From NCBI RefSeq assembly GCF_007995055.1, contig NZ_VOQQ01000001.1:1488001-1552000 (forward strand): a stretch of DNA of 64,000 nucleotides, written 5' to 3'. This document shows, in pieces, positions 1 through 14,677 of the stretch (positions are counted from its first letter, which is position 1; each line of letters starts with the position of its first letter). The translations under genes and the position numbers were made by a program. The notes below the pieces were generated by a model. The model had not been told where the DNA came from, searched no databases, and saw only the letters and a list, made by a program, of their open reading frames with translations. This DNA comes from Sphingosinicella ginsenosidimutans (GTDB taxonomy: Bacteria > Pseudomonadota > Alphaproteobacteria > Sphingomonadales > Sphingomonadaceae).

Positions 1-1188
1 GTCATAGATCGTGGTCGAGCGGCCCGTGTCCGGGTCGAGGCTGACGATCACCCGCGGGCGGGTCGGCGTCTCGCGCGCGCAGACCAGCCTGCGCCCGAGG
101 AGCTGGCAGCCGATCAGCGCATCGGTCGTAGCGAGGAGCGCCACCGGCGCAGGCTCGGCATCGATGCGCCAGCGATAGAGCGTGGTCGTGCCGCCATTTT
201 CGGGCGTGCCGCCCTGCATGAAGAGCAGCTCGCCGGGATCGCGCCACCACAGCGCCCCGACCGCGTCCGCGCAGGCCTCCATCGTGCAGGTGCGGGTCCG
301 GCCGCTGGCTTCGACTTGGAGCTTGGTCGGCCCCTGTACCAGGCCCGGGTCGGTCGGCGACGTCCATGCGCGCGCACCGTCGGCCGACCGGGCGTAGAGC
401 CGGGCACCGGCGGGCTTTCCGTTGTCCCGCCGGTCGGCCGCATCGCCCCCTTCGATCGTGCGGCCGGTGTCCGGGTCGACGAGCCGCTCAACGGTCGGCA
501 GCGGCAGCCGCGGACGCGGGCGAGCCTCCGACAGCGTCCAGAACCGCCGGTCGTAGAGGAAGCCGCGGCGCCCTTCGCGCTCGATCGCGGCGTTCGCGGC
601 AGCCATCGGCCGGGTGGTGACGACCAGCGCCTTGCCATCCTCGGACCAGCGGACGGCGCGCACGTCCTCGGCGTCATGCGTCACCGGTCCCGCGTAGCTT
701 CCGTCGCGCCGCGCGCGCCAGGCTTGGGTCACGCCCCGGTCGCGCCTGAGATAGACGAGCCAGCGACCGTCGGGCGACCATAGCGGCGTCACCGGCTGCT
801 CGGTGCCCACCGGCAGGTCGGGAACGCCGTGGCTGTCGCCGCGCGCGAGGATGAATTCGCCGCCGACGTCGATCAGCCGCGGCGCCCTGGCGCGGTCGAG
901 CGGCACGACGACGATCCCGATGCAATAGCGATCGGTATCGGGATCGGCCCGGCGCAGAGCGATCGCGAGCTCGGTGCCGTCGGGGGACAGGCTGAACGGC
1001 GACGGCCCCGAGAGTGCGGTATCGGATCGCCCGAAATCGCGCAGTTCGACAAGATCGCGCGGGGTGACATCGCGCGCCACCGCAGGCTCCGCCGACACCA
1101 GCCGCGCGCGGCAGTCCTCGGCCATGGCGGCCGATGGAACCATCAGCCATGCCGCCGCAAGGCCGAAGCGCAGTGCGACCCTCACCAT
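1..1188 (-). CDS. Atxe2-family lasso peptide isopeptidase (partial, C-terminus off window)
   Basis: Family members hydrolyse the isopeptide bond that closes the macrolactam ring of a lasso peptide, turning the threaded peptide into a linear one. The visible 396 codons start with a signal peptide (basic MVRVALRF, hydrophobic stretch, AMA cleavage site near residue 24). The segment after it contains VTPRDLVELRDFG and repeated propeller-like blades such as FSLSPDGTELAIAL and LWSPDGRWLVYLRR, as in the N-terminal beta-propeller of prolyl-oligopeptidase-like enzymes. The catalytic alpha/beta-hydrolase domain would lie left of base 1. The ATG overlaps the end of the TonB receptor gene by 7 bp, so the two are translationally coupled. 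The isopeptidase name rests on my recognition of the N-terminal region and on the FecI-FecR-TonB context; a general S9 peptidase is the alternative. Confidence 0.75.
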   Translation of the reverse strand, partial: MVRVALRFGLAAAWLMVPSAAMAEDCRARLVSAEPAVARDVTPRDLVELRDFGRSDTALSGPSPFSLSPDGTELAIALRRADPDTDRYCIGIVVVPLDRARAPRLIDVGGEFILARGDSHGVPDLPVGTEQPVTPLWSPDGRWLVYLRRDRGVTQAWRARRDGSYAGPVTHDAEDVRAVRWSEDGKALVVTTRPMAAANAAIEREGRRGFLYDRRFWTLSEARPRPRLPLPTVERLVDPDTGRTIEGGDAADRRDNGKPAGARLYARSADGARAWTSPTDPGLVQGPTKLQVEASGRTRTCTMEACADAVGALWWRDPGELLFMQGGTPENGGTTTLYRWRIDAEPAPVALLATTDALIGCQLLGRRLVCARETPTRPRVIVSLDPDTGRSTTIYD

Positions 1189-4124
1189 TTCTTGGTGACG
1201 GTGAGCGAGACGACCCGGCCAAGCGGGCTGGCGTTGTCCGGATCGAACCCGACCGAGAAGGGGCCGAGGAAATAGGCCGCCTTGGGCGGATCGCGGTCGA
1301 ACAGGTTGGTGGCGCTCAGTGCAATGCTGAGATCATGGTCGGTTCCGGCTTTGCCGAAGCGATAGCCGATCTGCAGATCGAACGTCGTCCACGAATGGAC
1401 CTTCTGCGGCGTGGCGTTGGTGAGGTTGGTGTAGCCGTCGAGATAGTTGCCGAACACGAAAATGTTGAGGCGGTCGTCGGACCAGCCGGCGCGGCCGCGC
1501 AGGCGCAGGTCGACGGGGTTGCCGAGCCGGTCGACCACATCGGTCGAAGGCGCGGTGGCGGTGAGCGCCTGGTCGATATGGAAGATGTAGGCGCCGGTCA
1601 GGCCGACATCGGCCTTCCCGCCGAGCAGGTCGAAACCGTAGCCGAGATCGAGATCCAGCCCGCTTTGCTTCACGGTCGAGAGATTCTGCAGCCGGGCGTC
1701 GATCAGCAGCGAAATCTGGCTGGGCGTCAGGTTGAAGGGGTTCTGGAAGACCGGAGAGGCGAAGTAGCTCTGGATCGTCGCGAGCGAGGGATTGGCATCG
1801 ATGATGCCGGCATAGGTCGCGCGGTTGACCAGGAAGTTGAGCAGGTTCGCCGCCGGCGAGGCGATGCGGTCGCGATAGTGGATGTTGTAGTAGGTCAGGC
1901 TGAGCTGGAGGTTGGGGATCGACGGCGGCCGCACGTCCGCGCCGAGGGTCCAGCTCGTTGCCCGCTCGGGACGCAGGTCCGGATCGTTGCCGCGCAGCAC
2001 CAGCACGTTGGTCTGGCCGGTCGGAGAAGCCGGATCGGGCAAGGTATAGGTGAAAAACAGCGAATTGGCCGGGTCCTGCCTCAGGTTGTTGAAGTTGGGG
2101 GCGCGGAACGACTTGCCCCAGGTGCCGCGCACGGTCAGGCCCGGGAAGGGTTCCCAGGCGATGCCGATTTTCGGATTGGTGGTGGTCCCGAAGTCGCTGT
2201 AGCGCTCGGTCCGCACCGCCGCCGAGAGGTCGAGCCGCCGAAACCCCGGCAGCGTGAAATCCTCGCCAAACACCGGTACGTGCACTTCGCCGTAGAGCGC
2301 GCGGACCCGGCGCGGCCCGGGCAAGGCGATCGGCGCGAGCGTCACGGGCGTCAGCGTGCTGACGTCGCTGATCGTCGTGCTATCGTTGTATCGTTCCTCG
2401 CGATATTCGCCACCGACCGCCAGCCGGATGTCTCCGCCCGGAAGCGTGGCGAGCGGCCCATCCGCCCGCAGCGCCGCCGACCACACCGTGCCGCTGTTGC
2501 CCGAGCGGGTGGAACCGCGGACCTCGGCGATCGTCGCGGGATTGGTGGAGGGGCCGTCGCCGAACAGGTTGTAGGCGGTCGCGGGATCGGTGTCGGCCAG
2601 TGCGGCATTGAGCCGGGCGGTGTTCACCCGGTTGGAGATTGTGGTGCGCTCGGTCTGGCGCCCCCAGGTGCCGTGCAGGTCGATGTTCCAGCGGCCGAGG
2701 TCGGCATCGAGTCCGAGGCTGCCGCCATAGGCTTCGACCCGGCCGCTGGTCGTCTCCGGACCGAGATCGCGCACGAAGCTGTACTGGACACGCACCGGCT
2801 GCCGGGTGCCGATGGGGTCGACATAGAAGGGATTGGTCACCGGCACGGTGCGGGCGGCATTGCTGATCGGCCGCTCGCGCTGGGTGAAGCTGCGCGACGA
2901 ATAGAGGCCACGGGCATAGAGCCGGACGTTCGGCGCGAACTCCTGGGTGGCGGCGGCGAAGACCGAGTGCCGGCGCTGGTCCGGGAGCAGGTCGGCATCG
3001 GTCCAGTCGTTGCCGAGGTTGAACGTGTTCGCCACCAGATCGCCCGGCTTCAGACTGCGACCATCCTGTCCCCGCGGGATCGCGAAGGTACGGCCGTTCG
3101 CGGCGATGATGGTTCCTGGGTTCGCGTAGCGGGTGCGATTGTCGGTGCCGCCATAGTTTCGCAGATCGTCGGTGGCATAGGCCCGGTCCGCCGCGGCCAG
3201 GCGCGTCCGATGGTAATATTCGTAGGCGATCATCGCCTGCCCGCCCGACCAGTGGGTGCCGATGAGCTGGCTCGCGACGATGTCTTGGGAATCGCCGTCG
3301 GCGGTGCCGATCCGGAACTTGGTTTCGGCCCCGGTGAAGTTGAGCCGCGGGATGATGTTGACGACGCCTGCAACCGCGTCCGATCCGTAGATCGCGGAAG
3401 CCCCATCGGCGACGATCTCGATCCGTTCGATCGCGGACGCCGGAATCATAGAGACATCGCTGAACACGCCGGAGAAGCCGCCGAGCGGCGGCCGATCGCC
3501 GTTCAGCAGGACCAGCGTCGATCCAGTGCCGAGCCCGCGTAGGTTGATGCTCGAACCGGCCGCGGTGTTGAACCCTGAGTCCGAATTGAACGACCCGGCG
3601 CCGTTGCCCTCGTTGGGAGAACCCCCGAAATTCTGCGGGATGGTCTGGGCGATGTCCTGCGTCGTGGCATAGCCGCTGCGCTCAATCGCCTGCCGATCGA
3701 CGACATTCACGGTCGAGCCCACCGGGCCGGACCCGCGGATGCGGGTTCCGGTGACGACGATCTCGCCCGAGGGTGCCCCTTGATCCCCTGGATCGCTGTC
3801 GCTGGACCGGACGCGCTCGATCAGCAGTCCGTCGCCTACCCGGCACCCGGTCAGCCCCGAACCTGCGAGCAGCGCTTCGACGACTTCGCCGAGCGTATAG
3901 TCCCCTCGGATTGCCGGTGCCGTCCTGCCCCGAAGCAGTTCCGCGGGAGCGGCGATATTGCGCCCCGACCGCATCGAAACTTCGCGGAGCGACCGGGCAA
4001 GCGGTTGGGCGGGTAAATCGTAGCTCTGCCGTTGCTCCTGGGCGGCGGCTGCGGGAGCCAGGGGCGCGGACAGGCCCGCGACGGAAATGGACAGAGCAAG
4101 CGCGACCTTCGGAACAATCGACAT
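1182..4124 (-). CDS. TonB-dependent receptor with N-terminal STN signalling domain (putative lasso peptide receptor)
   Basis: This outer-membrane receptor of 980 aa imports a ligand using TonB energy. A signal peptide ends near AAAAQEQ (residues 1-28). A secretin/TonB N-terminal (STN) domain follows at about 33-105 (YDLPAQPLARSLREVSMRSG), the part that talks to a FecR anti-sigma factor. The plug is at about 120-260 (IVVTGTRI, NLRGLGTGSTLVLLNGDRPP, EIVADGASAIYGSDAVAGVV) and the rest is a 22-strand-type barrel ending in VTKKW. It lies 81 bp after fecR and overlaps the isopeptidase gene. Such receptors in lasso clusters are thought to take the lasso peptide back into the periplasm; that ligand is inferred from context only. 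A siderophore or other peptide is possible. Confidence 0.88.
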   Translation of the reverse strand: MSIVPKVALALSISVAGLSAPLAPAAAAQEQRQSYDLPAQPLARSLREVSMRSGRNIAAPAELLRGRTAPAIRGDYTLGEVVEALLAGSGLTGCRVGDGLLIERVRSSDSDPGDQGAPSGEIVVTGTRIRGSGPVGSTVNVVDRQAIERSGYATTQDIAQTIPQNFGGSPNEGNGAGSFNSDSGFNTAAGSSINLRGLGTGSTLVLLNGDRPPLGGFSGVFSDVSMIPASAIERIEIVADGASAIYGSDAVAGVVNIIPRLNFTGAETKFRIGTADGDSQDIVASQLIGTHWSGGQAMIAYEYYHRTRLAAADRAYATDDLRNYGGTDNRTRYANPGTIIAANGRTFAIPRGQDGRSLKPGDLVANTFNLGNDWTDADLLPDQRRHSVFAAATQEFAPNVRLYARGLYSSRSFTQRERPISNAARTVPVTNPFYVDPIGTRQPVRVQYSFVRDLGPETTSGRVEAYGGSLGLDADLGRWNIDLHGTWGRQTERTTISNRVNTARLNAALADTDPATAYNLFGDGPSTNPATIAEVRGSTRSGNSGTVWSAALRADGPLATLPGGDIRLAVGGEYREERYNDSTTISDVSTLTPVTLAPIALPGPRRVRALYGEVHVPVFGEDFTLPGFRRLDLSAAVRTERYSDFGTTTNPKIGIAWEPFPGLTVRGTWGKSFRAPNFNNLRQDPANSLFFTYTLPDPASPTGQTNVLVLRGNDPDLRPERATSWTLGADVRPPSIPNLQLSLTYYNIHYRDRIASPAANLLNFLVNRATYAGIIDANPSLATIQSYFASPVFQNPFNLTPSQISLLIDARLQNLSTVKQSGLDLDLGYGFDLLGGKADVGLTGAYIFHIDQALTATAPSTDVVDRLGNPVDLRLRGRAGWSDDRLNIFVFGNYLDGYTNLTNATPQKVHSWTTFDLQIGYRFGKAGTDHDLSIALSATNLFDRDPPKAAYFLGPFSVGFDPDNASPLGRVVSLTVTKKW

Positions 4125-4205
4125 TCGTGTCTTCCCCCTTTGCGCACGCCTGCGTGGCGTTGCTTGGGGGACTTCGACGCGACTGCGCCCCGCTACCCTG
4201 GGAAA

Positions 4206-5189
4206 TTATTTGCCGGGCTCGAGAACCAGGTTGTCGGCTTCGTCGCGCTCGATGCTCAGATCGAACATCGACCCGATCATTTCGGCGAGCTGCGCCGGTT
4301 CGCCTGCCTTGAACGTGCCGGTGAAGCGACGCTCACCGCCCATAGGATCGCGAAGGACGATCTGGGTTTGGCTGTAGCGGTTCGCCGAGGCCACCACATC
4401 GGCGAGCGGCGCGTCCTCGAAGGACAGCATGCCTGAGGGCCAGCGCGTTTCCGGGACCTTGATCGCGACCGGCGCGGCCGGGGCCTGGCTTCCGATCAGA
4501 GCGAGTTGCTGGCCCGGTCTCAGCATTGTCGAAGTTGCGGGCATGCCGACGGCGGCGGGCCGGCGAACCTCGACCGAGCCCTGCAGCAACACCACCAGGG
4601 TCCTCGATTCCCGCAGGTCGACATCGAAAACGGTTCCGTGGGCCACCACTTCGCCCGATCCGGCAGCGACGACGAAAGGCCGCCGCGTATCATGCGCGAC
4701 CTCGAAACGCGCACGACCCCGCTCGAGCTGAAGGCGACGCTGCTCGCCGTCGAAGCGCACCTGCACCACGCTGTTCGTATCGAGCGTGACGCGCGAACCG
4801 TCCTCGAGGGTGAAGGTGCGGATCTCGCCGACCCTGCTCGCCAGCATGGTTTGGGATGCCACGTTGTGCCGGCCGGTGCCGGTGAGAACGAGGCCACCGG
4901 CAACGAACAGTAGCAATACCGCGGCCACAGCGGCGGCGGCCTTCCACCATGACGGGCCGGCGGCGAGTCGCGGCTGCCGTGCGAAGGGCGTTCGCGATAC
5001 GAGCGCGGTGTCGTCCCAGCTGTCGAGCAACGCGTCATAGGTATCGGCGTGCTGCGGATCGGCGGCGTACCAGGTCTCGAAGTCCGCGATGTCCCGGTCG
5101 GCCGGCCCTGCTCGCAGGCGGGCGAGCCAGGCAATCGCCTCCTCGCGCACCGCCTCGGGCGCGCCGGGGCCCATCCTTCGCTGCTCCAT
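4206..5189 (-). CDS. FecR-family anti-sigma factor
   Basis: FecR proteins sit in the inner membrane, hold an ECF sigma factor inactive and release it when the periplasmic domain senses a ligand-loaded TonB receptor. The 327-aa protein has an N-terminal cytoplasmic anti-sigma region (EEAIAWLARLRAG..DIADFETWYAADPQHADTYD, residues 16-53), one membrane segment (about 84-106) and a FecR domain (about 117-215, with FTLEDGSRVTLDTNS and VVAHGTVFDVDL). A C-terminal STN-like segment follows at about 255-320. The start overlaps the last base of the sigma gene stop (TGATG), typical of coupled fecI-fecR pairs. With the STN receptor downstream, it completes a three-part cell-surface signalling pathway. Confidence 0.92.
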   Translation of the reverse strand: MEQRRMGPGAPEAVREEAIAWLARLRAGPADRDIADFETWYAADPQHADTYDALLDSWDDTALVSRTPFARQPRLAAGPSWWKAAAAVAAVLLLFVAGGLVLTGTGRHNVASQTMLASRVGEIRTFTLEDGSRVTLDTNSVVQVRFDGEQRRLQLERGRARFEVAHDTRRPFVVAAGSGEVVAHGTVFDVDLRESRTLVVLLQGSVEVRRPAAVGMPATSTMLRPGQQLALIGSQAPAAPVAIKVPETRWPSGMLSFEDAPLADVVASANRYSQTQIVLRDPMGGERRFTGTFKAGEPAQLAEMIGSMFDLSIERDEADNLVLEPGK

Positions 5190-5788
5190 CAGCGTCTCAG
5201 GACTCGATCGAGATGATCAATTGCCTTCGTCATGTGCCACTCGACGCCTTTTACGCTCAAGCCGGATCGCTCCGCGATCTGCTTGTAGCTCAATCCGTCT
5301 AGGCGGTGGGCGAGGAATATCTCGCGGGTCTTCGGCTTCAGCCGCATCAGCGCGTTCTGGAGCCGGTTGAGCTTGTCGCGTGCCTCCAGCGCGGCGACCA
5401 GGTCCGTGCCCGCCAGCGGAACCTCGTCGGCGGGAACGTGGCTGGCAAGCGACCTTTGCAGGGCAGACTTCGCGCGATCCCGCAGGAGGTTTGTCGCAAT
5501 CTGGTTGAGGTAGGCCTCCGGGCATTCGATTGCGCGGTCTCGACAGGCTGGCGAATTGGCAAACCGGACGAAGCTCTCGTGCAGGAGGTCGTCGGCGTCC
5601 TGCCGGTCCGTGCGCCGCGAGAAGAAGCGGAGCAGCCGTGGGCCATGGATGCGATAGAGGTCGTCAAGCGCGAACGCCGGTCGTGGGACGCGGTCCTCTG
5701 GCGGGAGCGGATCGTCCTCGCCAAGGCGCGGGAGTGCGGCTGCCCTCAACATGCCATCGGCCGCAAGCACTTGGGCCGCCGGCTGCAC
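5189..5788 (-). CDS. FecI-type ECF RNA polymerase sigma factor
   Basis: This is a 199-aa extracytoplasmic-function sigma factor. Region 2 is at about 43-112 (LDDLYRIHGPRLLRFFSRRT, then DADDLLHESFVRFA) and region 4 with its helix-turn-helix at about 145-197 (KTREIFLAHRLDGLSYKQIA). The sequence upstream of residue 40 is variable, so the true start may be the Met at 5752 or another downstream codon. It is the first gene of the minus-strand operon sigma - fecR - TonB receptor - isopeptidase. By analogy with FecI it probably activates the receptor operon. No promoter could be recognised in the 486 bp upstream. Confidence 0.9.
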   Translation of the reverse strand: MQPAAQVLAADGMLRAAALPRLGEDDPLPPEDRVPRPAFALDDLYRIHGPRLLRFFSRRTDRQDADDLLHESFVRFANSPACRDRAIECPEAYLNQIATNLLRDRAKSALQRSLASHVPADEVPLAGTDLVAALEARDKLNRLQNALMRLKPKTREIFLAHRLDGLSYKQIAERSGLSVKGVEWHMTKAIDHLDRVLRR

Positions 5789-6274: not shown

Positions 6275-7246
6275 TCAATCCTCCCGCATCATTTTTTCCT
6301 GCATATGCGCGCAGTAGGAGCAAAGCCCCTCGTCGAGTCCGTCGAGATAATCCTGGATGCCGATGCCTTCCCCGCAGCGAACGCACTCAGTGGTATAGTC
6401 CAGAGGTTCGCTGCAAATCGCGCACCCGTCCTCGCCCTCAACCAGAGTCGCCCGGCCGCAGGCGGGGCAATTGTAGATGGGGCCGTCCTCGAATGTCTCC
6501 TTGAAGCGGATATAGCCTTCTGTCCCGTGCACCTTTTCGATCGCCCGTTCGATCGCATCACCCATCTCGACGTCTTGTCCGCAGGTCTTACAGCGGAGCT
6601 CCGCACAGTCCTGGCTTTCGTTATCGGGCTCGACCTGCTCGACCAGCTCGGACTGACAACTTCCGCATTTGATCAGTTCCGCCGTGATCGACGGGGAATG
6701 CCACCCGATCTTTTCAAGGGTCGCGCGCGCTTCCCCGAGCTCCTGGTCGTATAGCTCTTTGGTCGCCAGCATGGTTGTCCATGCCTCTCCCAGCAGGGCA
6801 ACCGGATCTTCCTCCAATTGTCGGAACAACGATGCGGCGACCGGGAACCCCTTACTGATTGCGGCGCGGATCGCCGTCGCCGATTCCGACGTGTAATGAT
6901 GCTCTATGTCGTTGCGGATCGTGTTCAGCGCCTTGAGCGCCCTGCCATCCAAGGTGATCCCGAAATCCTTGGCGCGCTCGCCGATCTGCTGAAAATCGAT
7001 CGTCGAATGGCCGACCTGCGCCATCTCGATGCCGCCCTGGCCGTCGGGCACAGGTTTGAGCTTCGCACCGATGACATGCTGGGGATCGGCATTCGGTGCC
7101 GCCCGAATGAGCGCTTCCTTCGCAAGCAGCAACACGCCGGCGTAGAAATTGCGGACCGCTGAAATATCGCGATCATGGTCCTGTTGCCGAAAATCTTCGA
7201 CCCCCATCCGGATCGACGCGATCGCGTTCTCAAATAGTGAAGGCAT
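6275..7246 (-). CDS. HEPN-like domain protein with C-terminal zinc ribbons, unknown function
   Basis: I do not recognise a named family for this 323-aa protein. The N-terminal half is helical: residues 32-50 (VRNFYAGVLLLAKEALIRA) resemble the first HEPN helix. Residues 111-118 read RNDIEHHY, an R-x4-H arrangement of the kind found at the active site of HEPN ribonucleases (positions 6893-6916). The C-terminal half (about 190-320) carries at least four CxxC-type knuckles (CGSC, CKTC, CPAC, CAIC, CVRC, CSYC), i.e. several zinc ribbons, and a highly acidic spacer. It is 75 bp downstream of a metalloprotease gene on the same strand, inside the putative tRNA-Ser island. A defence or RNA-processing role is conceivable but is inference from motif and location only. 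Confidence 0.7.
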   Translation of the reverse strand: MPSLFENAIASIRMGVEDFRQQDHDRDISAVRNFYAGVLLLAKEALIRAAPNADPQHVIGAKLKPVPDGQGGIEMAQVGHSTIDFQQIGERAKDFGITLDGRALKALNTIRNDIEHHYTSESATAIRAAISKGFPVAASLFRQLEEDPVALLGEAWTTMLATKELYDQELGEARATLEKIGWHSPSITAELIKCGSCQSELVEQVEPDNESQDCAELRCKTCGQDVEMGDAIERAIEKVHGTEGYIRFKETFEDGPIYNCPACGRATLVEGEDGCAICSEPLDYTTECVRCGEGIGIQDYLDGLDEGLCSYCAHMQEKMMRED

Positions 7247-7321
7247 AAACTCTCGGAAACATTAGCAACCGGTGCAAGCGATAGCTAGCAGAGTGAGTAT
7301 AACTGTTCCATCGACACCGAA

Positions 7322-8556
7322 TCACTGGTCATCTAGCCGGGGAAACAGTCCGAGGATGCGGACATCGGTGCCGTTTTCGGCAACGCGCAGACGAATTCGC
7401 TCGCGCGGAACCCTGCCCTGGGACCTCAGCCGCCGGAGGTTCATCACAGCGGCAACGCGCATCCCATCCGAGATGATATCCACAACCCGTACTGCCGCCG
7501 AGAAACTTTTGCCGGTGTTATGGTAGCGAAGCTGCATCGCGATCGCGTCGCGAATCTTTCGCGCCCGCTCCGTCGCGCTCGGATGGGTAAAGCTCATGGC
7601 GCCGGCCTGGCCACCGAACACTTCGAAGCAAGCGTCCAAAGTCTCGACGCTTTTGAGAAAAATGTATGGCGCGAGCGCGGTATAGATGTGGGGAATGCGA
7701 AGCCGGATCGTCGTCTGCATGGTGACGATCGAGCCAACGACGTCCGCCTGAAATTCATCCTCGTGCGAATACACGGACGCGACCAGGTCCTCGAGTCCCT
7801 CCACGCCGATCTGCCGTGTCTGCTCCGCTTCGAGGTGACCGAGATGGAGATGCCCGAGCTCGTGCGCGATCGGGAACATGTTGAGCGCCGGACTGAGCAG
7901 CCCGACGAGCATCATCGCCGCCGGACTGGGCGGCCAGGGCTCGCTGGCCCGCGGCGTGCCGCGCATGACCGCCGAACAGAACAGGTCGGCTGCCCGCTTC
8001 TGCAACTCCGGATCGCGAATGTTATCGGCCACTAAGACGGGATCGAGGCTGGCCTCGCCAGGGAACGGGTTATTGCGCACGAGGCATTCGGCGAAGAGCT
8101 TCGCGATCGAATGGCAGAAGACAGTCAGATCGGCATCGACGAAGATATGGTAATGCTTTTCGTCCCAGCTGTTGGTTGCGCACAGCGCGTTCACCTGGCC
8201 CGATGCGAGCGACGAAACCATCAGCCTGCGACCGCCGGTCTTCATCTCGGCGTCAGTCATGGTCTTGGTCAGAATGTCGACCAGCGCGGACGTGCTGCGT
8301 CGCACATCCGGTTCGTCAAACTCGCTGATCTTCTCGAGGTCGCCGCGATTGAACATCTTATCGACCAGATGCTGCGGCAGCCCCCCTCCAAGGCGGCTCG
8401 GATGAGCCGGTTGGTATGGGCCGGATCGGCATCCGCTCCGGTCCACTCGCGGGCGATCTTTCCCATCAGGCTTTCGGCCTGTCGCGCTTGAATCGAATGC
8501 GCCCAGTCTATCGCGCCCTGATGTTCCAGATCGGAAATGTCATTGGTATCGGCCAT
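7322..8556 (-). pseudogene. Zinc metalloprotease (HELGH) interrupted by a frameshift
   Basis: The gene starts at 8556 (MADTNDISDLEHQGAIDWAH) and reads in one frame to about 8386. The same protein then continues in another frame to the stop at 7322, giving about 411 aa if joined. The switch falls at a run of six C (8381-8386; six G on the coding strand); one extra G restores a smooth join (RAALEGGLPQHLVDKMF). The distal part has a zinc protease site AHELGHLHLGH (HELGH at 7851-7865) and a downstream acidic EDEFQAD that could give the third ligand. It precedes the HEPN gene on the same strand. The break may be a real loss, an assembly error in a homopolymer, or a -1 programmed shift on G-GGG-GGC. 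Substrate unknown. Confidence 0.7.
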
Positions 8557-8782
8557 GCGCCGGCAATCCGGTAAATAGGAGCTGTTTTCAAGCGGCTAGT
8601 CCAAATGGGACGCCAAGGTCTCGGTCGGCGCAACCAGCTCCCCCAAACCTAAACTTGCCCGCCAATCAGCGATTTCGATGCCGTCCCCACCATGGGAGAG
8701 GAAGTGCTTAGGCTTGGTGGCAGCCCCCTCCGCCTGAAAGTTTGCAGCGTCGCAGGCGATGCACAACAACTTGGCGCCAACA
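8557..8782. other. Intergenic stretch, no supported gene
   Basis: Between the metalloprotease start and the VOC remnant there is one minus-strand frame that continues past the remnant in another frame. Its translation is not recognisable and has no good ribosome site. I see no repeat, terminator or RNA gene here. Confidence 0.5.
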
Positions 8783-8940
8783 TCATTTAACCCGGTAAAT
8801 CGCGCAGAGCTTGTTTCCGTCAGGATCGCGCACGTAAGCGAGATGCATCGGTCCAAAGCTGCCGCTGCGCAGGCCCGGCGGCTCTTCGATTGAGGTGCCG
8901 CCGTACACGACTGCACCTGCCAACGACCTGACGGTGTTTC
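8783..8940 (-). pseudogene. Truncated VOC (glyoxalase/bleomycin-resistance-like) family remnant
   Basis: A minus-strand frame ending at a TGA at 8783-8785 encodes about 50 residues resembling the C-terminal half of a VOC protein. It contains VVYGGTSIEEPPGLRSGSFG followed by MHLAYVRDPDGNKLCAIYRV. The YVRDPDGNK signature is characteristic of this superfamily. The N-terminal half is missing: upstream the frame loses similarity and runs into the integrase gene end (8978). The piece is likely a leftover from insertion or deletion events at the island. Confidence 0.6.
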
Positions 8941-8977
8941 TTCGCGACGTGGATGGTGGGCTTTTGACTGACGGCTG

Positions 8978-10318
8978 CTAGGCCGCCTCCGAGCGTCGAC
9001 GGAACCGGAAGTCCCTCGGGACCGGCTTGGGCACGATTCGGCGCGACCACTCGCTGGTCGTCTTCGCCGGCCGCTCGACGAGGACAGCCGGTGCCGGCAT
9101 TCCCTTCAGGAGCATGTCGGCCCAAGCCTGCGCCAGTTCGCGCCGACGCGGCATATAGGCGGCGCGGTTGTAGGCGCCCTCGACCTTCTCCTTCGGGACA
9201 TGCGCGAGCATCAGGTCGATCACCTGACGGTCATGCTCTTTGCCCTGCCGCTCCGCCCATTCGTTCATGATGGTCGAGAACGCCGCCCGGAAGCCGTGCG
9301 GCACATGGTGCCCGTGGTAGCCGGCGCGGTTGAGCAGGTAGCCGATCGCGTTCTCGCTCATCGGGCGATGGGTGTGCCGATTGCTGGGGAAGAGCAGGTC
9401 GCAGCTTCCGGTGAGCGGCCAGAGCGCCCGCAGCACCGCGATGCTCTGGCGAGCCAGCGGCACCAGATGATCGCCGTCGGGCTCCTCCTTGCGGTCGAGA
9501 TCGCCCTTCATCCGGGCAGCAGGGATGCGCCACAGGGGCTTGCGGCCATCGAGATCCTCGAATTCGGCCCATCGGGCGCCGCGCAGCTCGCTTGGCCTGA
9601 CCGCGGTGAGGGCAAGGAAGCGCAGGGCCAAGCGGGTTATCGGCCGAGCGTTGTCCTCTTCGGCATCCTTGATCATCTGGCGTAGCCGCTCGATGTCGGT
9701 GATCGCCGGTTGGCGTCCCTTGCGCAGGGGCTTGAGGACCTTGCCGAGCTTCTCGGCCGGGTCATTCTCCACGATGCCTTGGGCAATGCCGTAGACGAAC
9801 ACCGCGGAGATTCGCTGCCTGACCCGCTTGGCGGTTTCGATCGCCCCGCGGGCCTCGATCTCGCGCAGCACGCCCAGCACGAGCGGCGGCGTCAACTGCG
9901 CAATCGGCAGAGCGCCGATGGTCGGGAAGACGTCGCGCTCGAGGCTGCGGATGACGTCAGACGCGTGGATCTTGGCCCATTGCGCCTTGGAATTCTCGTA
10001 CCACTCGCGCGCAACGCGCTCGAACGTCATCCGTCCAGCCTCGATATTCGCCTCGATCTGGAGCTTCCTGGCGATGGCGGGGTCGCGCCCCTCGCTGAGG
10101 ATGGCTACGGCCTCGTCGCGCTTCCCGCGCGCATCGGCGAGTAAGACGACGGGATAGGCGCCGAAGGCCATGCTCTTCTGCTTGCCGTCGTAAGTATAGT
10201 TCCAGCGCCAGAGCTTGCCACCGCTGGGGGTCACCAGAAGGTAGAGTCGGTTGGAATCGGCGAGCTTGTAGGATTTGGGGCGCGGCTTGGCCGTGCGGAC
10301 CTTGGTATCGGTGAGCAT
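8978..10318 (-). CDS. P4-type tyrosine-recombinase integrase
   Basis: This site-specific recombinase of 446 aa integrates genomic islands into tRNA genes. The N-terminal DUF4102-like arm-binding domain begins at MLTDTKVRTAKPR (about 1-90; DSNRLYLLVTPSGGKLWRW). A core-binding domain follows, then the catalytic domain with Arg in TAVRPSELRGARW, the HxxR box PHGFRAAFSTI and the nucleophile Tyr in EKVEGAYNRAAY. I chose the Met at 10318 over the longer frame because family members start at this motif. The gene lies 182 bp left of a tRNA-Ser whose 3' end faces it. The layout indicates integration at that tRNA, with the island extending left. All catalytic residues are present, so it may be active. 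Confidence 0.93.
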   Translation of the reverse strand: MLTDTKVRTAKPRPKSYKLADSNRLYLLVTPSGGKLWRWNYTYDGKQKSMAFGAYPVVLLADARGKRDEAVAILSEGRDPAIARKLQIEANIEAGRMTFERVAREWYENSKAQWAKIHASDVIRSLERDVFPTIGALPIAQLTPPLVLGVLREIEARGAIETAKRVRQRISAVFVYGIAQGIVENDPAEKLGKVLKPLRKGRQPAITDIERLRQMIKDAEEDNARPITRLALRFLALTAVRPSELRGARWAEFEDLDGRKPLWRIPAARMKGDLDRKEEPDGDHLVPLARQSIAVLRALWPLTGSCDLLFPSNRHTHRPMSENAIGYLLNRAGYHGHHVPHGFRAAFSTIMNEWAERQGKEHDRQVIDLMLAHVPKEKVEGAYNRAAYMPRRRELAQAWADMLLKGMPAPAVLVERPAKTTSEWSRRIVPKPVPRDFRFRRRSEAA

Positions 10319-10335
10319 TGGCGGTCTCCTGAAAA

Positions 10336-10377
10336 TACCACGTTTTTCGACCGCGCGTACCACGTTTGCGTACCACC
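10336..10377. repeat. Short direct repeats TACCACGTTT upstream of the integrase
   Basis: The 10-mer TACCACGTTT occurs at 10336-10345 and again at 10358-10367, 22 bp apart (about two helical turns). A third partial copy TACCACC is at 10371-10377. They sit directly upstream of the integrase start at 10318. They could be operator sites for integrase control or arm-type sites bound by the integrase or an excisionase. This is inferred from position only. Confidence 0.45.
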
Positions 10378-10500
10378 GAATCGCCGGATTGGTTCGGACG
10401 GGTACGGACGGCCGTGGCCGAGCTGATCGGCTAAGTGTTGGATTTCAGGAGAGAAACGTCGATCCCACTGGACTTCTACGAACCCTTATGGAAGGGTCGG

Positions 10501-10591
10501 TGGCGGAGCGGGAGGGATTCGAACCCTCGATACGGTTTTGCCGTATACTCACTTTCCAGGCGAGCGCCTTCGACCACTCGGCCACCGCTCC
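10501..10591 (-). tRNA. tRNA-Ser (anticodon GGA)
   Basis: The minus strand folds as a class II tRNA with a long variable arm. The acceptor stem GGAGCGG pairs with CCGCTCC, followed by discriminator G and an encoded CCA. The D arm is GGCCGAGTGGTCGAAGGC, the anticodon stem-loop CTCGCCTGGAAAGTGAG contains GGA, and the T arm contains GGTTCGAATCC. GGA reads UCC/UCU serine codons. Its 3' end faces the integrase gene, making it the likely insertion target of the island; the tRNA remains intact. Confidence 0.95.
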
Positions 10592-10630
10592 GCATGCCTT
10601 AGAACGCGTCCCCTTAGAGACGCCGGCGGG

Positions 10631-10927
10631 CTAGGGCAAGCTGGGGGCGATGGCGTCGATCGCGCGGGCGAGCGCGACGTCCCTGGCGGTGACGCCGCCG
10701 GCATCGTGGGTGGTGAGCAGGATGTCGACCCGGTTCCACACGTTTGACCAGTCGGGATGGTGATCGGCCTTCTCGGCCGCCAGCGCGACGCGGGTCATGA
10801 AGGCGAAGGCCTCGCCGAAATCGCCGAAGGTGAGGCGTCTCGCGAGGCCGTTGCGCGCTGCATCGAACGTCCAGCCGTCCAGTCCCTCCAGCGCCGCCGC
10901 CCGCTCGGATTCGGTCAACACGCTCAC
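10631..10927 (-). CDS. phhB: Pterin-4a-carbinolamine dehydratase
   Basis: This 98-aa cytoplasmic enzyme dehydrates 4a-hydroxytetrahydrobiopterin to quinonoid dihydropterin, recycling the cofactor of aromatic amino acid hydroxylases. The family signature is clear: [19 protein letters not shown] near the start and the active-site region [18 protein letters not shown] (two His, then Pro-Asp-Trp). [16 protein letters not shown] near the end is also typical. Length matches the family. No phenylalanine hydroxylase is adjacent. Confidence 0.93.
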
Positions 10928-10956
10928 GCCTCTTCCTCCCTGTCGCGGCGCCCTCT

Positions 10957-11367
10957 ATGTGCCGTGTCATGGCCGGGGGTCAAACCTTTGCGCCCGACGC
11001 TGCGGCGATCGAGCGATTGGCGGAGGCGGCGATCGCCGCGCTCCCCGCGCGCTTCCGCGCGATGATCGGCGATGTCGTGCTGCGGATCGAGGAATTCGCC
11101 GACGAGGAGGTGCTCGAAAGCCTCGGCATCGAGGATCCGTTCGAGCTTTCGGGGCTCTATTCCGGCCGCTCGCTCGACAAGGCCGACAATTGGGCCTCGG
11201 GCGAGTTGCCGCCGATGATCCACCTCTATCGCCGCGCGCTGCTCGACGAATGGGTCGAGACCGGCGTGTCGCTCGAGAATCTCGTCACCCACGTCATCGT
11301 CCACGAGGTCGGCCATCATTTCGGGCTGTCCGATGCCGATATGCACGCGCTCGAGGAGGAGGCGTGA
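10957..11367 (+). CDS. Small metallopeptidase family protein (zincin-like)
   Basis: This 136-aa protein carries an HExxH zinc-binding site in THVIVHEVGHHFGLSD near the C-terminus. The N-terminal half (AEAAIAALPARFRAMIGDV, IEEFADEEVLESLGI) matches the small family of acidic predicted Zn-proteases common in Alphaproteobacteria. Translation may start at Met1 or at Met5 (10969). Its stop overlaps the GTG of ccmA by 4 bp, so they are co-translated. A direct role with CcmAB is unproven. Confidence 0.82.
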   Translation: MCRVMAGGQTFAPDAAAIERLAEAAIAALPARFRAMIGDVVLRIEEFADEEVLESLGIEDPFELSGLYSGRSLDKADNWASGELPPMIHLYRRALLDEWVETGVSLENLVTHVIVHEVGHHFGLSDADMHALEEEA

Positions 11368-11930
11368 GCGCGCTGCTGCGCTTGGCGGGGGTGACGGCGC
11401 GGCGCGGCGGACGGACGCTGTTCGAAGGGCTGGACCTGGTGCTTCAGGCGGGCGAGGCGGCGGTGCTGACCGGCCCGAACGGCATCGGCAAATCGAGCCT
11501 GATCCGCCTTGCCGCCGGGCTGCTGCGCGCCGACGCGGGGCAGGTCGCGCGGGCCGAGGCGGCACTGGCCGATGAACATCTCGCGCTCGACGAGCGCCGG
11601 CGGCTCGGTGATGCGCTCGCCTTCTGGGTGCGACGCGGCGGGCGCGAACAGGTCGCTGCGGGAATGGCGGCGATGGGGCTCGATCATCTGGCCGAGGTGC
11701 CGGTGCGGATGCTCTCGACCGGCCAGCGCAAGCGCGCCGCGCTCGCCCGGGTGATCGCCAGCGGCGCGCCGCTCTGGCTGCTCGACGAGCCGGCGAACGG
11801 GCTCGATGGAGAGGGGCAGGAGCGGCTCGCCGCGGCGATGGCCGCGCACCGGGCGGCGGGCGGCGCGGTCCTCGCCGCCACCCACCAGCCGCTCGGGCTC
11901 GACGATGCGCGCCAGGTGGCGCTCGGATGA
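11364..11930 (+). CDS. ccmA: Cytochrome c biogenesis heme exporter, ATP-binding subunit CcmA
   Basis: CcmA is the ATPase of the CcmABCD complex that releases holo-CcmE during c-type cytochrome maturation. The 188-aa ABC domain has Walker A GPNGIGKSS (about 37-45), signature LSTGQRKRAAL and Walker B LWLLDEPANGLD. The start is a GTG at 11364 that overlaps the previous stop (GTGA). The frame is open further upstream, but the sequence there is non-homologous. It is followed by ccmB with an ATGA overlap. Confidence 0.92.
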   Translation: MSALLRLAGVTARRGGRTLFEGLDLVLQAGEAAVLTGPNGIGKSSLIRLAAGLLRADAGQVARAEAALADEHLALDERRRLGDALAFWVRRGGREQVAAGMAAMGLDHLAEVPVRMLSTGQRKRAALARVIASGAPLWLLDEPANGLDGEGQERLAAAMAAHRAAGGAVLAATHQPLGLDDARQVALG

Positions 11931-12568
11931 TCGCGCTGATCCTTCGCGAGCTTCGCCTTGCCGCGACCGGCGGCGCGGCCGTGCTCCCGCTCGTTTTCTT
12001 CCTTCTGGTGGCGACGCTCTTTCCCTTCGCGGTCGGACCGGACGGGCCGCTCCTCGCGCGAACAGGCGGCGGCGCGCTCTGGATGGCCGCCCTGCTCGCC
12101 GCCCTGCTCCCGGTCGACCGACTCGTCGCGCCGGACCGCGACGCTGGCGTGCTCGATCAGCTCGCCTTGCGCGGGATCGGCGAGGAGACGATCGCGGTGG
12201 CCAAGCTCGCCGGCCACTGGCTGAGCTTCGGCCCCCCGCTCATGCTCGCCGCGCTCCCGGCCTCGGCTTTGCTCAAGCTCCCCGCCGACGTGCTCGCCCG
12301 GCTCGAACTCGGGCTCCTGATCGGGACGCCCGGCCTTGCCGCCCTCAGCCTCGGCGTGGCCGCGCTGACCGCGAGCCTGCGCCGATCCGGCGCGCTTGCC
12401 GGTCTGCTCATGCTCCCGCTCGCCGTTCCTCTGCTGATCTTCGGCGCGGGCCTGGTGGAGCGTGGCAATGAGGACGGCGCGCTTCGATTCCTCGCTGCCG
12501 TCTCGCTGCTGCTGGTCGCCGGCGCGCCGTTCGTCGCCGGCGCGGCCATCCGCGCCGGACGGGATTAA
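11927..12568 (+). CDS. ccmB: Cytochrome c biogenesis heme exporter, permease CcmB
   Basis: This 213-aa membrane protein has about six hydrophobic segments. MIALILRELRLA at the N-terminus and DRDAGVLDQLALRG at about 70-83 are typical of CcmB. It forms the membrane part of the heme-handling ABC complex with CcmA. Stop and neighbouring convergent stop overlap (12565-12568). ccmC, ccmD and ccmE are not next to it in this window. Confidence 0.92.
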   Translation: MIALILRELRLAATGGAAVLPLVFFLLVATLFPFAVGPDGPLLARTGGGALWMAALLAALLPVDRLVAPDRDAGVLDQLALRGIGEETIAVAKLAGHWLSFGPPLMLAALPASALLKLPADVLARLELGLLIGTPGLAALSLGVAALTASLRRSGALAGLLMLPLAVPLLIFGAGLVERGNEDGALRFLAAVSLLLVAGAPFVAGAAIRAGRD

Positions 12569-13431
12569 TCGTTCGACCAGCGCGCGAAGATCGCGGTCGG
12601 GAGGAGCAGGCCGCGCGCTTCCTCCCGCACCGCCATGTCGCCGCATTCGACGGTGCCGCCGAGGTCGCCGAGCGCCTGGCGCAGCAGCTCGCCGATCGCG
12701 AGCGCCGACATGCGGACGGCATAGACGGTGAGCACGAGGAAGCGGCTGTCGGCGTCGAGCAGCTTGCGGCAATCGGCGATCAGCCCGGGCAGGCCTTCCT
12801 CAAGCCGCCAGACCTCACCCTCCGGTCCCCGGCCGAATTTGGGTGGATCGAGGATGATGCCGTCATAGCGCCGGCCGCGCCGCACCTCGCGCGCGGTGAA
12901 CTTGGCGGCATCGTCGACCAGCCAGCGGATCGGCCGCTCGCGCATGCCGGACAGGGCGGCATTGGCCTTGGCGGCCTCGACCGATTTCTTCGAGGCATCG
13001 ACATGGGTGAGCCTGGCCCCCTTCGCCGCCATCGCCAGCGTGCCGACGCCGGTATAGCCGAACAGGTTGAGCGCCTCCGCCCCCTCCGCCAATCGCGCGC
13101 GCATCCACGCCCATTGCGGCGCCATGTCCGGGAAGAAGGCGAGATGGCGGAAGGGCGTCGCCTGCGCCTGGAAGCGCACCTCCTCCCAGCCGAGCGGCCA
13201 GCCCTCGCGCGGTGGCGGCCGGGTGAAATGCCAGCGCCCGCCGCCCTCCTCGTCGGAGCCGGGGACGAACTCGCCATTGGCGTCCCAATCGGCCGATGCG
13301 GGCGCCCACAGTGCCTGCGGCTCGGGCCGGATGAAGCGGCAGGGGCCGTAGCGCTCCAGCTTGCGGCCGTGGCCCGAATCGACGAGCCCGTAATCCGCCC
13401 ACGGCTCCGCGATCAGCGTATCCAGCGTCAC
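12565..13431 (-). CDS. Class I SAM-dependent rRNA methyltransferase (RlmI/RlmL-like catalytic domain)
   Basis: The 288-aa enzyme has a Rossmann SAM-binding motif LNLFGYTGVGTLAMAAKGA (about 119-137), an acidic loop THVDASKKSV and a catalytic motif IILDPPKFGRG. This set is typical of the 23S rRNA m5C/m2G methyltransferases related to RlmI. It lacks the N-terminal PUA domain of RlmI, as do many short alphaproteobacterial homologues. The exact target base is unknown. Its start overlaps the stop of the upstream M16 peptidase gene by 4 bp. Confidence 0.85.
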   Translation of the reverse strand: MTLDTLIAEPWADYGLVDSGHGRKLERYGPCRFIRPEPQALWAPASADWDANGEFVPGSDEEGGGRWHFTRPPPREGWPLGWEEVRFQAQATPFRHLAFFPDMAPQWAWMRARLAEGAEALNLFGYTGVGTLAMAAKGARLTHVDASKKSVEAAKANAALSGMRERPIRWLVDDAAKFTAREVRRGRRYDGIILDPPKFGRGPEGEVWRLEEGLPGLIADCRKLLDADSRFLVLTVYAVRMSALAIGELLRQALGDLGGTVECGDMAVREEARGLLLPTAIFARWSND

Positions 13432-14657
13432 GCCGCCCTGACCGCCGGCACGCCGATCGTCGCGCGCGCCTGGGTGCCGGCAAGCATCGCCGCCCCGGCT
13501 GCGCGGACCTCGTCCAGCGTCACTGCGTCGATCTGCGCCACGAGCTCGGCCGGCGGGACGAGCCGGCCATGGATGGCGAGCACGCGGGCGACGTAATTCG
13601 CCTGGCCCCAGCTGGTTTCGAGGCTCATCAGCAGCCCCGCCTTGGCCTGGGCCTTGGCGCGCTCGAGCTCGCGCGGGGTCGCCGTGCGGGCGGCGTCGCG
13701 AACCACGTCTTCGATCAGCGCGGAGGCGGCGGTGGCCTCGCGCCGGGCGGTCGCGGCGTAGAGATAGAGAAGGCCGGCGTCGCGATAGGTCTGGACCGAG
13801 GACCAGACCGAATAAGCAAGGCCCCGATCCTCGCGCACCGCCTGGAACAGTCGCGAGGAGGCGCCGGCGCCGACGATGTCGGAGAAGAGTCGCGCGCCGT
13901 GTGCGTCCGCTTCCCCCGCGGCGGGTGCCGGCCAGGCGACGGCGAGATGAGCCTGATCGGCGCGGGGCCTGCTTGCGCGGCTGGTTCCGGCAAAGCGCGC
14001 CGTGTCTGCCGCCGCGATCCGGCCTTCCGGAAGGCTGGCGAACCGCTCCTCCGCGACCGCGACCAGCGCGCCATGATCGACCTTGCCGGCGGCGACGAGG
14101 GTGAGGCTGCCGGCACGATAGCGTTCCTTTCGCCAGGCATGGAGATCATCGACGCCGATCGCGGCGATGCTGGCCTCGTCGCCGAGCACCGAGCGGCCGA
14201 TGGGCTGGTCCGGAAAGGCAGCCATCCACAGATCGTCGAAGATGATGTCGGATGGCGTGTCGCGCGCCTCGCCAAGTTCCTGGAGGACGACCTCCTTTTC
14301 GCGGGCGAGATCGTCGGCCTTGAAATGCGGCGCGAGGATCATGTCGGCGATGACCTCGATCCCGAGCGGCAGATGTTCGGCGAGCAGGGTCGCGGAAAAG
14401 CTCGTGCCCTCGCGATCGGTGGCGGCGTTGAGATCGCCGCCGACATCCTCGATCGCCTCGCTGATCTCGCGCGCGGATCGCGGGCCGGCGCCCTTGAACA
14501 CCATATGTTCGTAGAGGTGGGCGATGCCGTTCAGCCGCGCCGGCTCGTGCCGCGCGCCGGCCTCGGCATACAGGCCGACCGCGACCGTCTCGATCCCCGG
14601 CATCGTGCGGCTGGCGACACGAAGGCCGTTGGGAAGGGTGGTGAGTTGCATGGGCAT
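13428..14657 (-). CDS. M16 (pitrilysin/processing-peptidase-like) zinc peptidase
   Basis: This 409-aa peptidase has the inverted zinc motif HLYEHMVFKG (HxxEH, about 47-56) and the downstream Glu ligand region REKEVVLQELGEARD. The N-terminal TLPNGLRVASRTMPGIETVA is typical of the bacterial relatives of mitochondrial processing peptidase. There is no signal peptide, so it is probably cytoplasmic. It lies 20 bp after the SURF1 gene on the same strand at the end of the oxidase cluster. Its substrate is unknown. Confidence 0.92.
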   Translation of the reverse strand: MPMQLTTLPNGLRVASRTMPGIETVAVGLYAEAGARHEPARLNGIAHLYEHMVFKGAGPRSAREISEAIEDVGGDLNAATDREGTSFSATLLAEHLPLGIEVIADMILAPHFKADDLAREKEVVLQELGEARDTPSDIIFDDLWMAAFPDQPIGRSVLGDEASIAAIGVDDLHAWRKERYRAGSLTLVAAGKVDHGALVAVAEERFASLPEGRIAAADTARFAGTSRASRPRADQAHLAVAWPAPAAGEADAHGARLFSDIVGAGASSRLFQAVREDRGLAYSVWSSVQTYRDAGLLYLYAATARREATAASALIEDVVRDAARTATPRELERAKAQAKAGLLMSLETSWGQANYVARVLAIHGRLVPPAELVAQIDAVTLDEVRAAGAAMLAGTQARATIGVPAVRAA

Positions 14658-14677
14658 GAGCGGCCGGATTTAGGCGC

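What the first reader, a model, noticed from the sequence alone, without database searches (positions are those of the whole stretch)
1..5788. Lasso peptide uptake and hydrolysis module without visible biosynthetic genes
The order ECF sigma - FecR - STN-type TonB receptor - Atxe2-like isopeptidase is the catabolic and sensing half of proteobacterial lasso peptide loci. No precursor (A), protease (B) or cyclase (C) gene is present in the visible 9 kb to the right. Either the synthesis genes lie left of base 1 or this strain only consumes lasso peptides made by others.
Basis: partly seen in the sequence, partly recalled or inferred. Interest (0 to 1): 0.7.

Follow-up and report, generated by a model that had tools for sequence, protein, structure and literature searches.

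The report
Complete lasso locus beside quorum-sensing genes
The window holds the uptake, sensing and breakdown half of an ordinary lasso-peptide gene cluster; the synthesis half lies just left of the window edge, and beside it sits a cell-density signalling cassette that recurs next to many such clusters in related bacteria.

Summary
In detail: window 1-5788 carries, on the minus strand, ECF sigma, FecR, an STN-type TonB receptor and the first half of an AtxE2-type lasso isopeptidase. Synthesis genes lie within 3.7 kb left of base 1: two tandem benenodin-family precursors, a B protein and a C cyclase, convergent with the isopeptidase. The missing isopeptidase half has Ser534, His645 and Glu617 in the AtxE2 columns. 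So this is a complete isopeptidase-type lasso cluster of a known kind. Less ordinary: luxR-luxI-phyH-gntR, on one strand, reads into the precursors. In 249 genomes of the family, 26 of 41 isopeptidase loci have this PhyH within 20 kb; 31 of 32 genomes with the isopeptidase have a LuxI, against 46 of 217 others; 18 of 51 mapped loci show the order luxR-luxI-phyH-gntR-B-C. gntR stands beside phyH in 31 of 33 lasso-linked cassettes but in 2 of 18 sampled unlinked ones. I infer quorum-gated lasso synthesis; this is untested. My searches of the held library found no paper reporting this link. The locus probably lies in a tRNA-Ser integrated element.

The parts
1..1188 (-). AtxE2-type lasso isopeptidase, N-terminal 396 of 722 aa; the gene continues left to G000:C1:1487020, where the Ser-His-acid hydrolase half lies
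   Evidence: NF033523 798.5 bits, cut-off 400; 5txc AtxE2 E 3.6e-143. A signal peptide is readable by eye only
1182..4124 (-). STN-type TonB-dependent receptor, 980 aa
   Evidence: PF07715, PF00593, PF07660; a homologue is present in 51 of the 51 loci mapped
4206..5189 (-). FecR-type anti-sigma/sensor, 327 aa
   Evidence: PF04773 78.4 bits, PF16220; homologue in 43 of 51 mapped loci
5189..5788 (-). ECF sigma factor, 199 aa (GTG start as listed by the ORF tool; the true start may be later)
   Evidence: PF04542, PF08281; TIGR02937 72.3 bits, cut-off 42.9; homologue in 50 of 51 mapped loci
8978..10363 (-). tyrosine integrase next to tRNA-Ser; right end of the putative integrative element that holds the lasso locus
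   Evidence: PF22022, PF13356, PF00589
10501..10591 (-). tRNA-Ser(GGA); a 25-bp exact copy of its 3' end lies 56.8 kb to the left in the same orientation
   Evidence: ARAGORN; copy at G000:C1:1441700-1441724

Best explanation
This is a complete isopeptidase-type lasso-peptide locus with its own quorum-sensing cassette. Left of the window, luxR, luxI, phyH, gntR, two precursors (A1, A2), B and C lie on the plus strand. The isopeptidase, TonB receptor, FecR and ECF sigma lie on the minus strand and converge on C. Shown: the genes, their order and their families. Inferred steps: (1) LuxI makes an acyl-homoserine lactone, and LuxR with it switches on luxI-phyH-gntR at high density. (2) GntR and/or read-through sets transcription of A1-A2-B-C. 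(3) B removes the leader after Thr-Leu, and C closes Gly1 to Asp8, giving two 21-residue threaded peptides. (4) The peptide leaves and is taken back through the TonB receptor, whose STN domain signals through FecR to the ECF sigma. (5) The sigma raises receptor and isopeptidase. (6) The isopeptidase opens the ring. PhyH most likely belongs to the LuxI signal branch, not to lasso tailoring.
For: Precursors over the NF033522 (benenodin) cut-off: 36.9 and 39.4 bits, cut-off 33. B over the NF033537 cut-off: 58, cut-off 33; its Cys165 and His197 (numbering; 160 and 192 in the trimmed alignment) are shared by 41 and 42 of 42 B proteins. C: PF00733 95.4 bits with an SGGLDS motif. E as above. LuxI: PF00765 89.4 bits, R24-F-W signature. 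Linkage: 26 of 41 isopeptidase loci, from 25 genomes and 19 of the 20 genera concerned, have PhyH within 20 kb. PhyH lies within 3 kb of LuxI in 75 of 78. 28 of 38 B hits with E within 20 kb have PhyH within 20 kb, against 4 of 110 B hits without E. About 1.8 PhyH with B or E within 20 kb are expected by chance, 33 of 78 observed. Order luxR-luxI-phyH-gntR-B-C in 18 of 51 mapped loci, cassette elsewhere in 13 more. gntR beside phyH in 31 of 33 lasso-linked cassettes (29 of 31, 2 of 2) against 2 of 18 sampled unlinked ones. A review states that GntR precedes the precursor and that a TonB transporter and sigma/anti-sigma pair follow E in the isopeptidase clusters found so far (PMC9266682, passages).
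Against: No expression, AHL or peptide data exist here. C is below the cut-offs of both lasso/macrolactam cyclase models (NF033535 36.8 of 525; NF033561 90.2 of 300). The classical lux-box core CTG-N10-CAG is absent upstream of luxI in 30 of 30 stretches, one of them only 8 bases long. The alternative palindrome CCC-N5/6-GGGA was written after looking at the sequences; it is found upstream of luxI in 12 of the 30 loci with LuxI, was not matched upstream of the precursors, and over whole loci is no commoner than in one shuffle (23 against 22). 15 of 41 isopeptidase loci have no PhyH within 20 kb, and 20 of 51 mapped loci show none. The genomes are related, so the tests overstate independence.
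Confidence: 0.75

Rival explanations
1. Ordinary lasso cluster; the luxR-luxI-phyH cassette is a neighbour carried on the same mobile island without regulating it.
For: The locus lies between a 25-bp direct repeat and a tRNA-Ser with integrase; PhyH exists without lasso genes (45 of 78 PhyH have neither B nor E within 20 kb); 15 of 41 isopeptidase loci lack PhyH within 20 kb.
Against: The linkage recurs in 26 of 41 loci and in several geometries, gntR goes with the lasso-linked cassettes, and B hits without E rarely have PhyH near.
Confidence: 0.3
2. PhyH is a lasso tailoring hydroxylase, like CanE of canucin.
For: PhyH is a phytanoyl-CoA dioxygenase-family protein, the second gene upstream of A1; CanE, an Fe/2-OG enzyme, beta-hydroxylates Asp14 of canucin A (PMC9266682, passages).
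Against: PhyH lies beside LuxI in 75 of 78 loci, and 45 of 78 have no B or E within 20 kb; luxI-phyH is already reported in a paper that does not mention lasso (PMC3704786, passages).
Confidence: 0.1
3. Consumer only: the strain takes up and hydrolyses lasso peptides of others.
For: The window alone shows no A, B or C. In a relative, G280, the catabolic set stands without detectable B or C.
Against: In this genome A1, A2, B and C are adjacent and read open.
Confidence: 0.02

Closest known systems
Astexin-2/-3 cluster of Asticcacaulis excentricus (AtxE2)
   Same: Isopeptidase homologous over nearly its full length with the same Ser, His and Glu columns; E, TonB receptor, sigma/anti-sigma and GntR architecture as the review describes for isopeptidase clusters (PMC9266682, passages)
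   Different: Different precursors; the review holds no occurrence of LuxI, LuxR, quorum or phytanoyl. I did not fetch the A. excentricus genome
Benenodin family of lasso peptides (NF033522)
   Same: Both precursors over the family cut-off
   Different: Own predicted cores GGEGKMPDLVREIPETGLSDE and GADGQLPDFVREIPQTGLSDD
Sphingocin locus of Sphingomonas BPH (PMC11006600, abstract and passages)
   Same: A-B-C without D, with an adjacent isopeptidase and TonB receptor set; precursor core also ends in GLSDD
   Different: One precursor; GntR has no occurrence in the text; luxI was not searched in that paper, but it is not among the papers holding both 'lasso peptide' and 'luxI'
luxR-luxI-phyH topology of Novosphingobium (PMC3704786, passages)
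   Same: luxR, luxI and phyH adjacent; the paper cites a hypothesis that phyH is in a quorum-regulated operon
   Different: The paper has no occurrence of 'lasso' or 'GntR'; here gntR and lasso genes follow

Membership tests
Isopeptidase-type lasso-peptide cluster | Precursor with Thr two before the cut, Gly1 core, Asp/Glu at 7-9 | tested here: met
   A1 and A2: T-L then G, Asp8; over the NF033522 cut-off. The Thr rule is recalled
Isopeptidase-type lasso-peptide cluster | B (leader protease) gene | tested here: met
   NF033537 58 bits, cut-off 33; Cys165 and His197 conserved
Isopeptidase-type lasso-peptide cluster | C (asparagine-synthetase-like cyclase) gene | tested here: inconclusive
   PF00733 95.4 bits and SGGLDS, place after B; but below the NF033535 and NF033561 cut-offs
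Isopeptidase-type lasso-peptide cluster | AtxE2-type isopeptidase with Ser-His-acid triad | tested here: met
   NF033523 798.5 bits; Ser534, His645, Glu617 in the AtxE2 columns Ser527, His638, Glu610. That Glu610 is the triad acid is recalled; the review says Ser-His-Glu/Asp
Isopeptidase-type lasso-peptide cluster | TonB receptor plus FecR plus sigma next to E; GntR before A | tested here: met
Isopeptidase-type lasso-peptide cluster | Threaded peptide is made and is hydrolysed by E | not testable with these tools
   needs expression and mass spectrometry
LuxR/LuxI quorum-sensing system | AHL synthase with Arg, Phe, Trp signature; LuxR with autoinducer-binding and HTH domains | tested here: met
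   PF00765; R-x3-F-x5-W from residue 24 in the own protein and in 29 of 30 LuxI of the mapped loci; PF03472 and PF00196
LuxR/LuxI quorum-sensing system | lux box of the CTG-N10-CAG kind upstream of luxI | tested here: not met
   0 of 30 stretches; CCC-N5/6-GGGA instead in 12 loci. The CTG-N10-CAG consensus is recalled
LuxR/LuxI quorum-sensing system | An AHL is made and controls the lasso genes | not testable with these tools
   needs reporter or LC-MS
Integrative element at tRNA-Ser | Integrase beside tRNA, direct repeat of the tRNA 3' end, transfer genes between | tested here: inconclusive
   integrase and tRNA, 25-bp repeat, coupling protein and ArdC; no full type IV secretion set was looked for

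The most novel reading that the evidence does not exclude
In this bacterial family, isopeptidase-type lasso peptides are the output of an AHL quorum circuit: gntR has been added to an existing luxI-phyH operon to put lasso synthesis under cell density, while the receptor-FecR-ECF arm senses the returned peptide and triggers its hydrolysis. The lasso peptide would then be a density-gated shared good or second-stage signal that is made, retrieved and destroyed, which would give the class of non-antibiotic lasso peptides a role.
Probability: 0.45. Interest if true: 0.7.

Novelty: new variant of a known kind. Interest (0 to 1): 0.45.

Why it matters
Known isopeptidase-containing lasso peptides, astexin-1 excepted, lack antimicrobial activity and the role of the system is open (PMC9266682, passages). 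A recurrent link to an AHL quorum cassette makes a direct test possible: does cell density switch on synthesis? As for the finding as given, the locus is an ordinary complete lasso cluster.

Tried and rejected
Consumer-only reading: rejected for this genome, since A, B and C lie next door. PhyH as tailoring enzyme: put low, since PhyH goes with LuxI whether or not lasso genes are near. CTG-N10-CAG lux box in front of A1: one match in the own locus, but 5 of 18 loci against 2.2 in shuffles, and 0 of 30 upstream of luxI, so dropped. A search for shared inverted repeats with 4-5 base arms found none in 26 luxR-luxI intergenic stretches; in the 170 bases after gntR it found TATA-N7-TATA in 6 of 16 and CTGC-N8-GCAG in 5 of 16, shuffles reaching 1-3. 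The CCC/GGG palindrome was seen by eye; one search counts 23 matches on one strand of the 51 loci against 22 in one shuffle, so only its position is informative. A search for a 15-bp repeat of the tRNA end in 14 kb left of the window plus the window found none; the copy was found genome-wide. The tRNA-Tyr that ARAGORN reports in L095 I take for a false positive, untested.

Rows dropped: I left out 15 of the 93 PhyH rows (E 1e-62 and weaker, or a fragment); also 4 of the 45 isopeptidase rows below the family cut-off, which includes. Distances are between printed start coordinates. The 18 unlinked cassettes are 18 of the 45 PhyH without B or E within 20 kb, picked by hand; the other two regions of that call, G061 and G203, are lasso-linked. 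PF13471 scored at most 17 candidates per genome and may miss some. The figure of 1.8 by chance assumes 3.4-Mb genomes and uniform placing.

Full report
Observation. On the minus strand of window 1-5788 lie an ECF sigma factor (5189-5788), a FecR protein (4206-5189), an STN-type TonB receptor (1182-4124) and an ORF cut by the window edge (1-1188). The window is G000:C1:1488001-1552000 of a 3.04-Mb genome. No call names the organism; a sphingomonad is my inference from the luxI-phyH topology reported for that group (PMC3704786, passages).

What lies left of base 1. I fetched G000:C1:1474001-1494000 as L002 (window position = L002 position minus 14000). On the plus strand: LuxR 7288-8073, LuxI 8151-8771, PhyH 8785-9654, GntR 9651-10274, precursor A1 10369-10488, precursor A2 10558-10677, B 10725-11402, C 11399-13108. 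The isopeptidase runs on the minus strand, 13020-15188, so C and E converge and overlap by 89 bases. A1 and A2 pass the cut-off of the benenodin family. Cores predicted by the Thr-x-Gly rule (recalled) are 21 residues with Asp at position 8. B passes the lasso B2 model; C is an Asn_synthase-family protein with an SGGLDS motif but is below the cut-offs of both lasso/macrolactam cyclase models.

The isopeptidase. The whole protein scores 798.5 bits against NF033523 (cut-off 400) and is the only match over the cut-off in this genome. It aligns with AtxE2 (5txc, E 3.6e-143) from residue 22 to 701; Ser534 and His645 fall on AtxE2 Ser527 and His638, and Glu617 on Glu610. In 5txe, also AtxE2, the serine column reads alanine. 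A Sec-type signal peptide is readable by eye at the N-terminus; no program was run.

Known architecture. A review says that the isopeptidase clusters found so far share a GntR-like regulator before the precursor and a TonB transporter plus sigma/anti-sigma pair after the isopeptidase (PMC9266682, passages). This locus fits, so as a lasso cluster it is a new member of a known kind.

The quorum cassette. That review has no occurrence of LuxI, LuxR, quorum, homoserine or phytanoyl. I searched 249 genomes of the window's family (at least 90% complete) with PhyH, the isopeptidase, LuxI and B. 41 isopeptidase loci over the cut-off lie in 32 genomes. 21 of 41 have PhyH within 10 kb and 26 of 41 within 20 kb; 31 of the 32 genomes have a LuxI, against 46 of the other 217. 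The 26 loci come from 25 genomes and 19 of the 20 genera concerned. Of 38 B hits with an isopeptidase within 20 kb, 28 have PhyH within 20 kb; of 110 B hits without one, 4 have. The 110 are a mixed control, since PF13471 need not be a lasso enzyme. Expected by chance were about 1.8 PhyH with B or E within 20 kb, observed 33 of 78.

Geometry. I mapped 51 loci (the own one, 12 from the relatives panel, 38 from the family panel) with profiles built from them. 31 of 51 hold PhyH. In 18 of 51 the order is luxR-luxI-phyH-gntR-(A)-B-C on one strand, convergent with the isopeptidase arm, as here. In 12 of the other 13 the cassette lies on the ECF side, reading toward or away from the ECF arm, and in one (L047) beyond B and pointing away. 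Linkage kept through rearrangement argues for function more than inherited order would. gntR stands beside phyH in 29 of 31 of these and in 2 of 2 further lasso-linked ones, but in 2 of 18 sampled unlinked ones. PhyH itself goes with LuxI (75 of 78 within 3 kb) whether or not lasso genes are near. So gntR, not phyH, looks like the joint between quorum circuit and lasso genes. Relatedness of genomes is not corrected for, so the p values are only descriptive.

Catabolic halves alone. 5 of 51 mapped loci show no C: L046, on a 4-kb contig, and L075, L076, L086 and L089. Three of the four genomes behind the latter have B elsewhere; G280 (L086) has no B match and no C match.

Control sites. The classical lux-box core is absent upstream of luxI in 30 of 30 stretches. 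A palindrome CCC-N5/6-GGGA sits 81-106 bases upstream of the luxI profile start in 12 of 30 loci, the own one included; the pattern was written after looking, and over whole loci it is no commoner than in one shuffle (23 against 22), so only its fixed place is suggestive. It was not matched before the precursors, so if the quorum signal controls the lasso genes, it should do so by read-through or through GntR. Upstream of A many of the 16 printed stretches share a sequence like GTATAAAATTCGGATA (seen by eye; weaker in the own locus), and the 55 bases before the first precursor tend to fold (mean z -1.6 over 31 loci, single-base shuffles).

Literature. Searches for lasso peptide with luxI, with quorum sensing, homoserine lactone and Sphing, with GntR and isopeptidase, lasso with quorum sensing, Sphingomonadaceae and LuxR, and with quorum sensing and isopeptidase listed no paper whose listing shows such a link. 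I read passages of PMC6963729 (capistruin in Burkholderia; an AHL-raised repressor, ScmR, is discussed), PMC12670498 and PMC13352647 (no occurrence of quorum or LuxR), PMC10915500 (a lasso cluster in a sphingomonad genome, LuxR domains mentioned apart) and PMC8125074 (homoserine-lactone and lasso clusters both present in two other bacteria's metagenome genomes, no adjacency stated). The library lacks most subscription journals, so the link may be in print elsewhere.

Setting. A 25-bp exact copy of the 3' end of tRNA-Ser (window 10501-10591) lies at G000:C1:1441700-1441724, in direct orientation, 56.8 kb to the left. Between them are a coupling protein, ArdC, defence-type genes and, next to the tRNA, a tyrosine integrase. 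The lasso-quorum locus thus probably sits in an integrative element.

Noticed in passing
G000:C1:1441700-1498524 (right end = window 10501-10524): Putative 56.8-kb tRNA-Ser integrated element holding the lasso-quorum locus: integrase, type IV coupling protein, ArdC, serine recombinase at the left end, plus SIR2, AIPR, HEPN/nucleotidyltransferase and C5-methylase genes that look like defence genes.
   Followed up: partly
L086 (G280:C2:275001-295000): Isopeptidase, TonB receptor, FecR and ECF sigma without B or C in the locus or, by three searches, in the genome: a candidate consumer-only strain.
   Followed up: partly
L002:10270-10368 and counterparts in L041-L068: Conserved stretch like GTATAAAATTCGGATA and a foldable palindrome just before the ribosome-binding site of the lasso precursor; in L040, L043 and others it reads GTCATGGCCATGAC. 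GntR operator or mRNA hairpin not decided.
   Followed up: partly
L002:8078-8091 and counterparts: Palindrome CCC-N5/6-GGGA right after luxR and 81-106 bases before the luxI profile start in 12 of 30 loci; candidate LuxR site of this family.
   Followed up: partly
L049:3562-19226: A relative of the same order (G058) has two isopeptidase genes in tandem and two B-C pairs at one locus.
   Followed up: no
G032:C1:331485-333360: An isopeptidase-like gene broken by several stops, an apparent pseudogene.
   Followed up: no
window 6275-8446: Two minus-strand genes between the ECF gene and the integrase: one without a Pfam match (6275-7246), one with a weak M48-like peptidase match below the cut-off (7322-8446); lower G+C (about 0.60) than the surroundings.
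   Followed up: no
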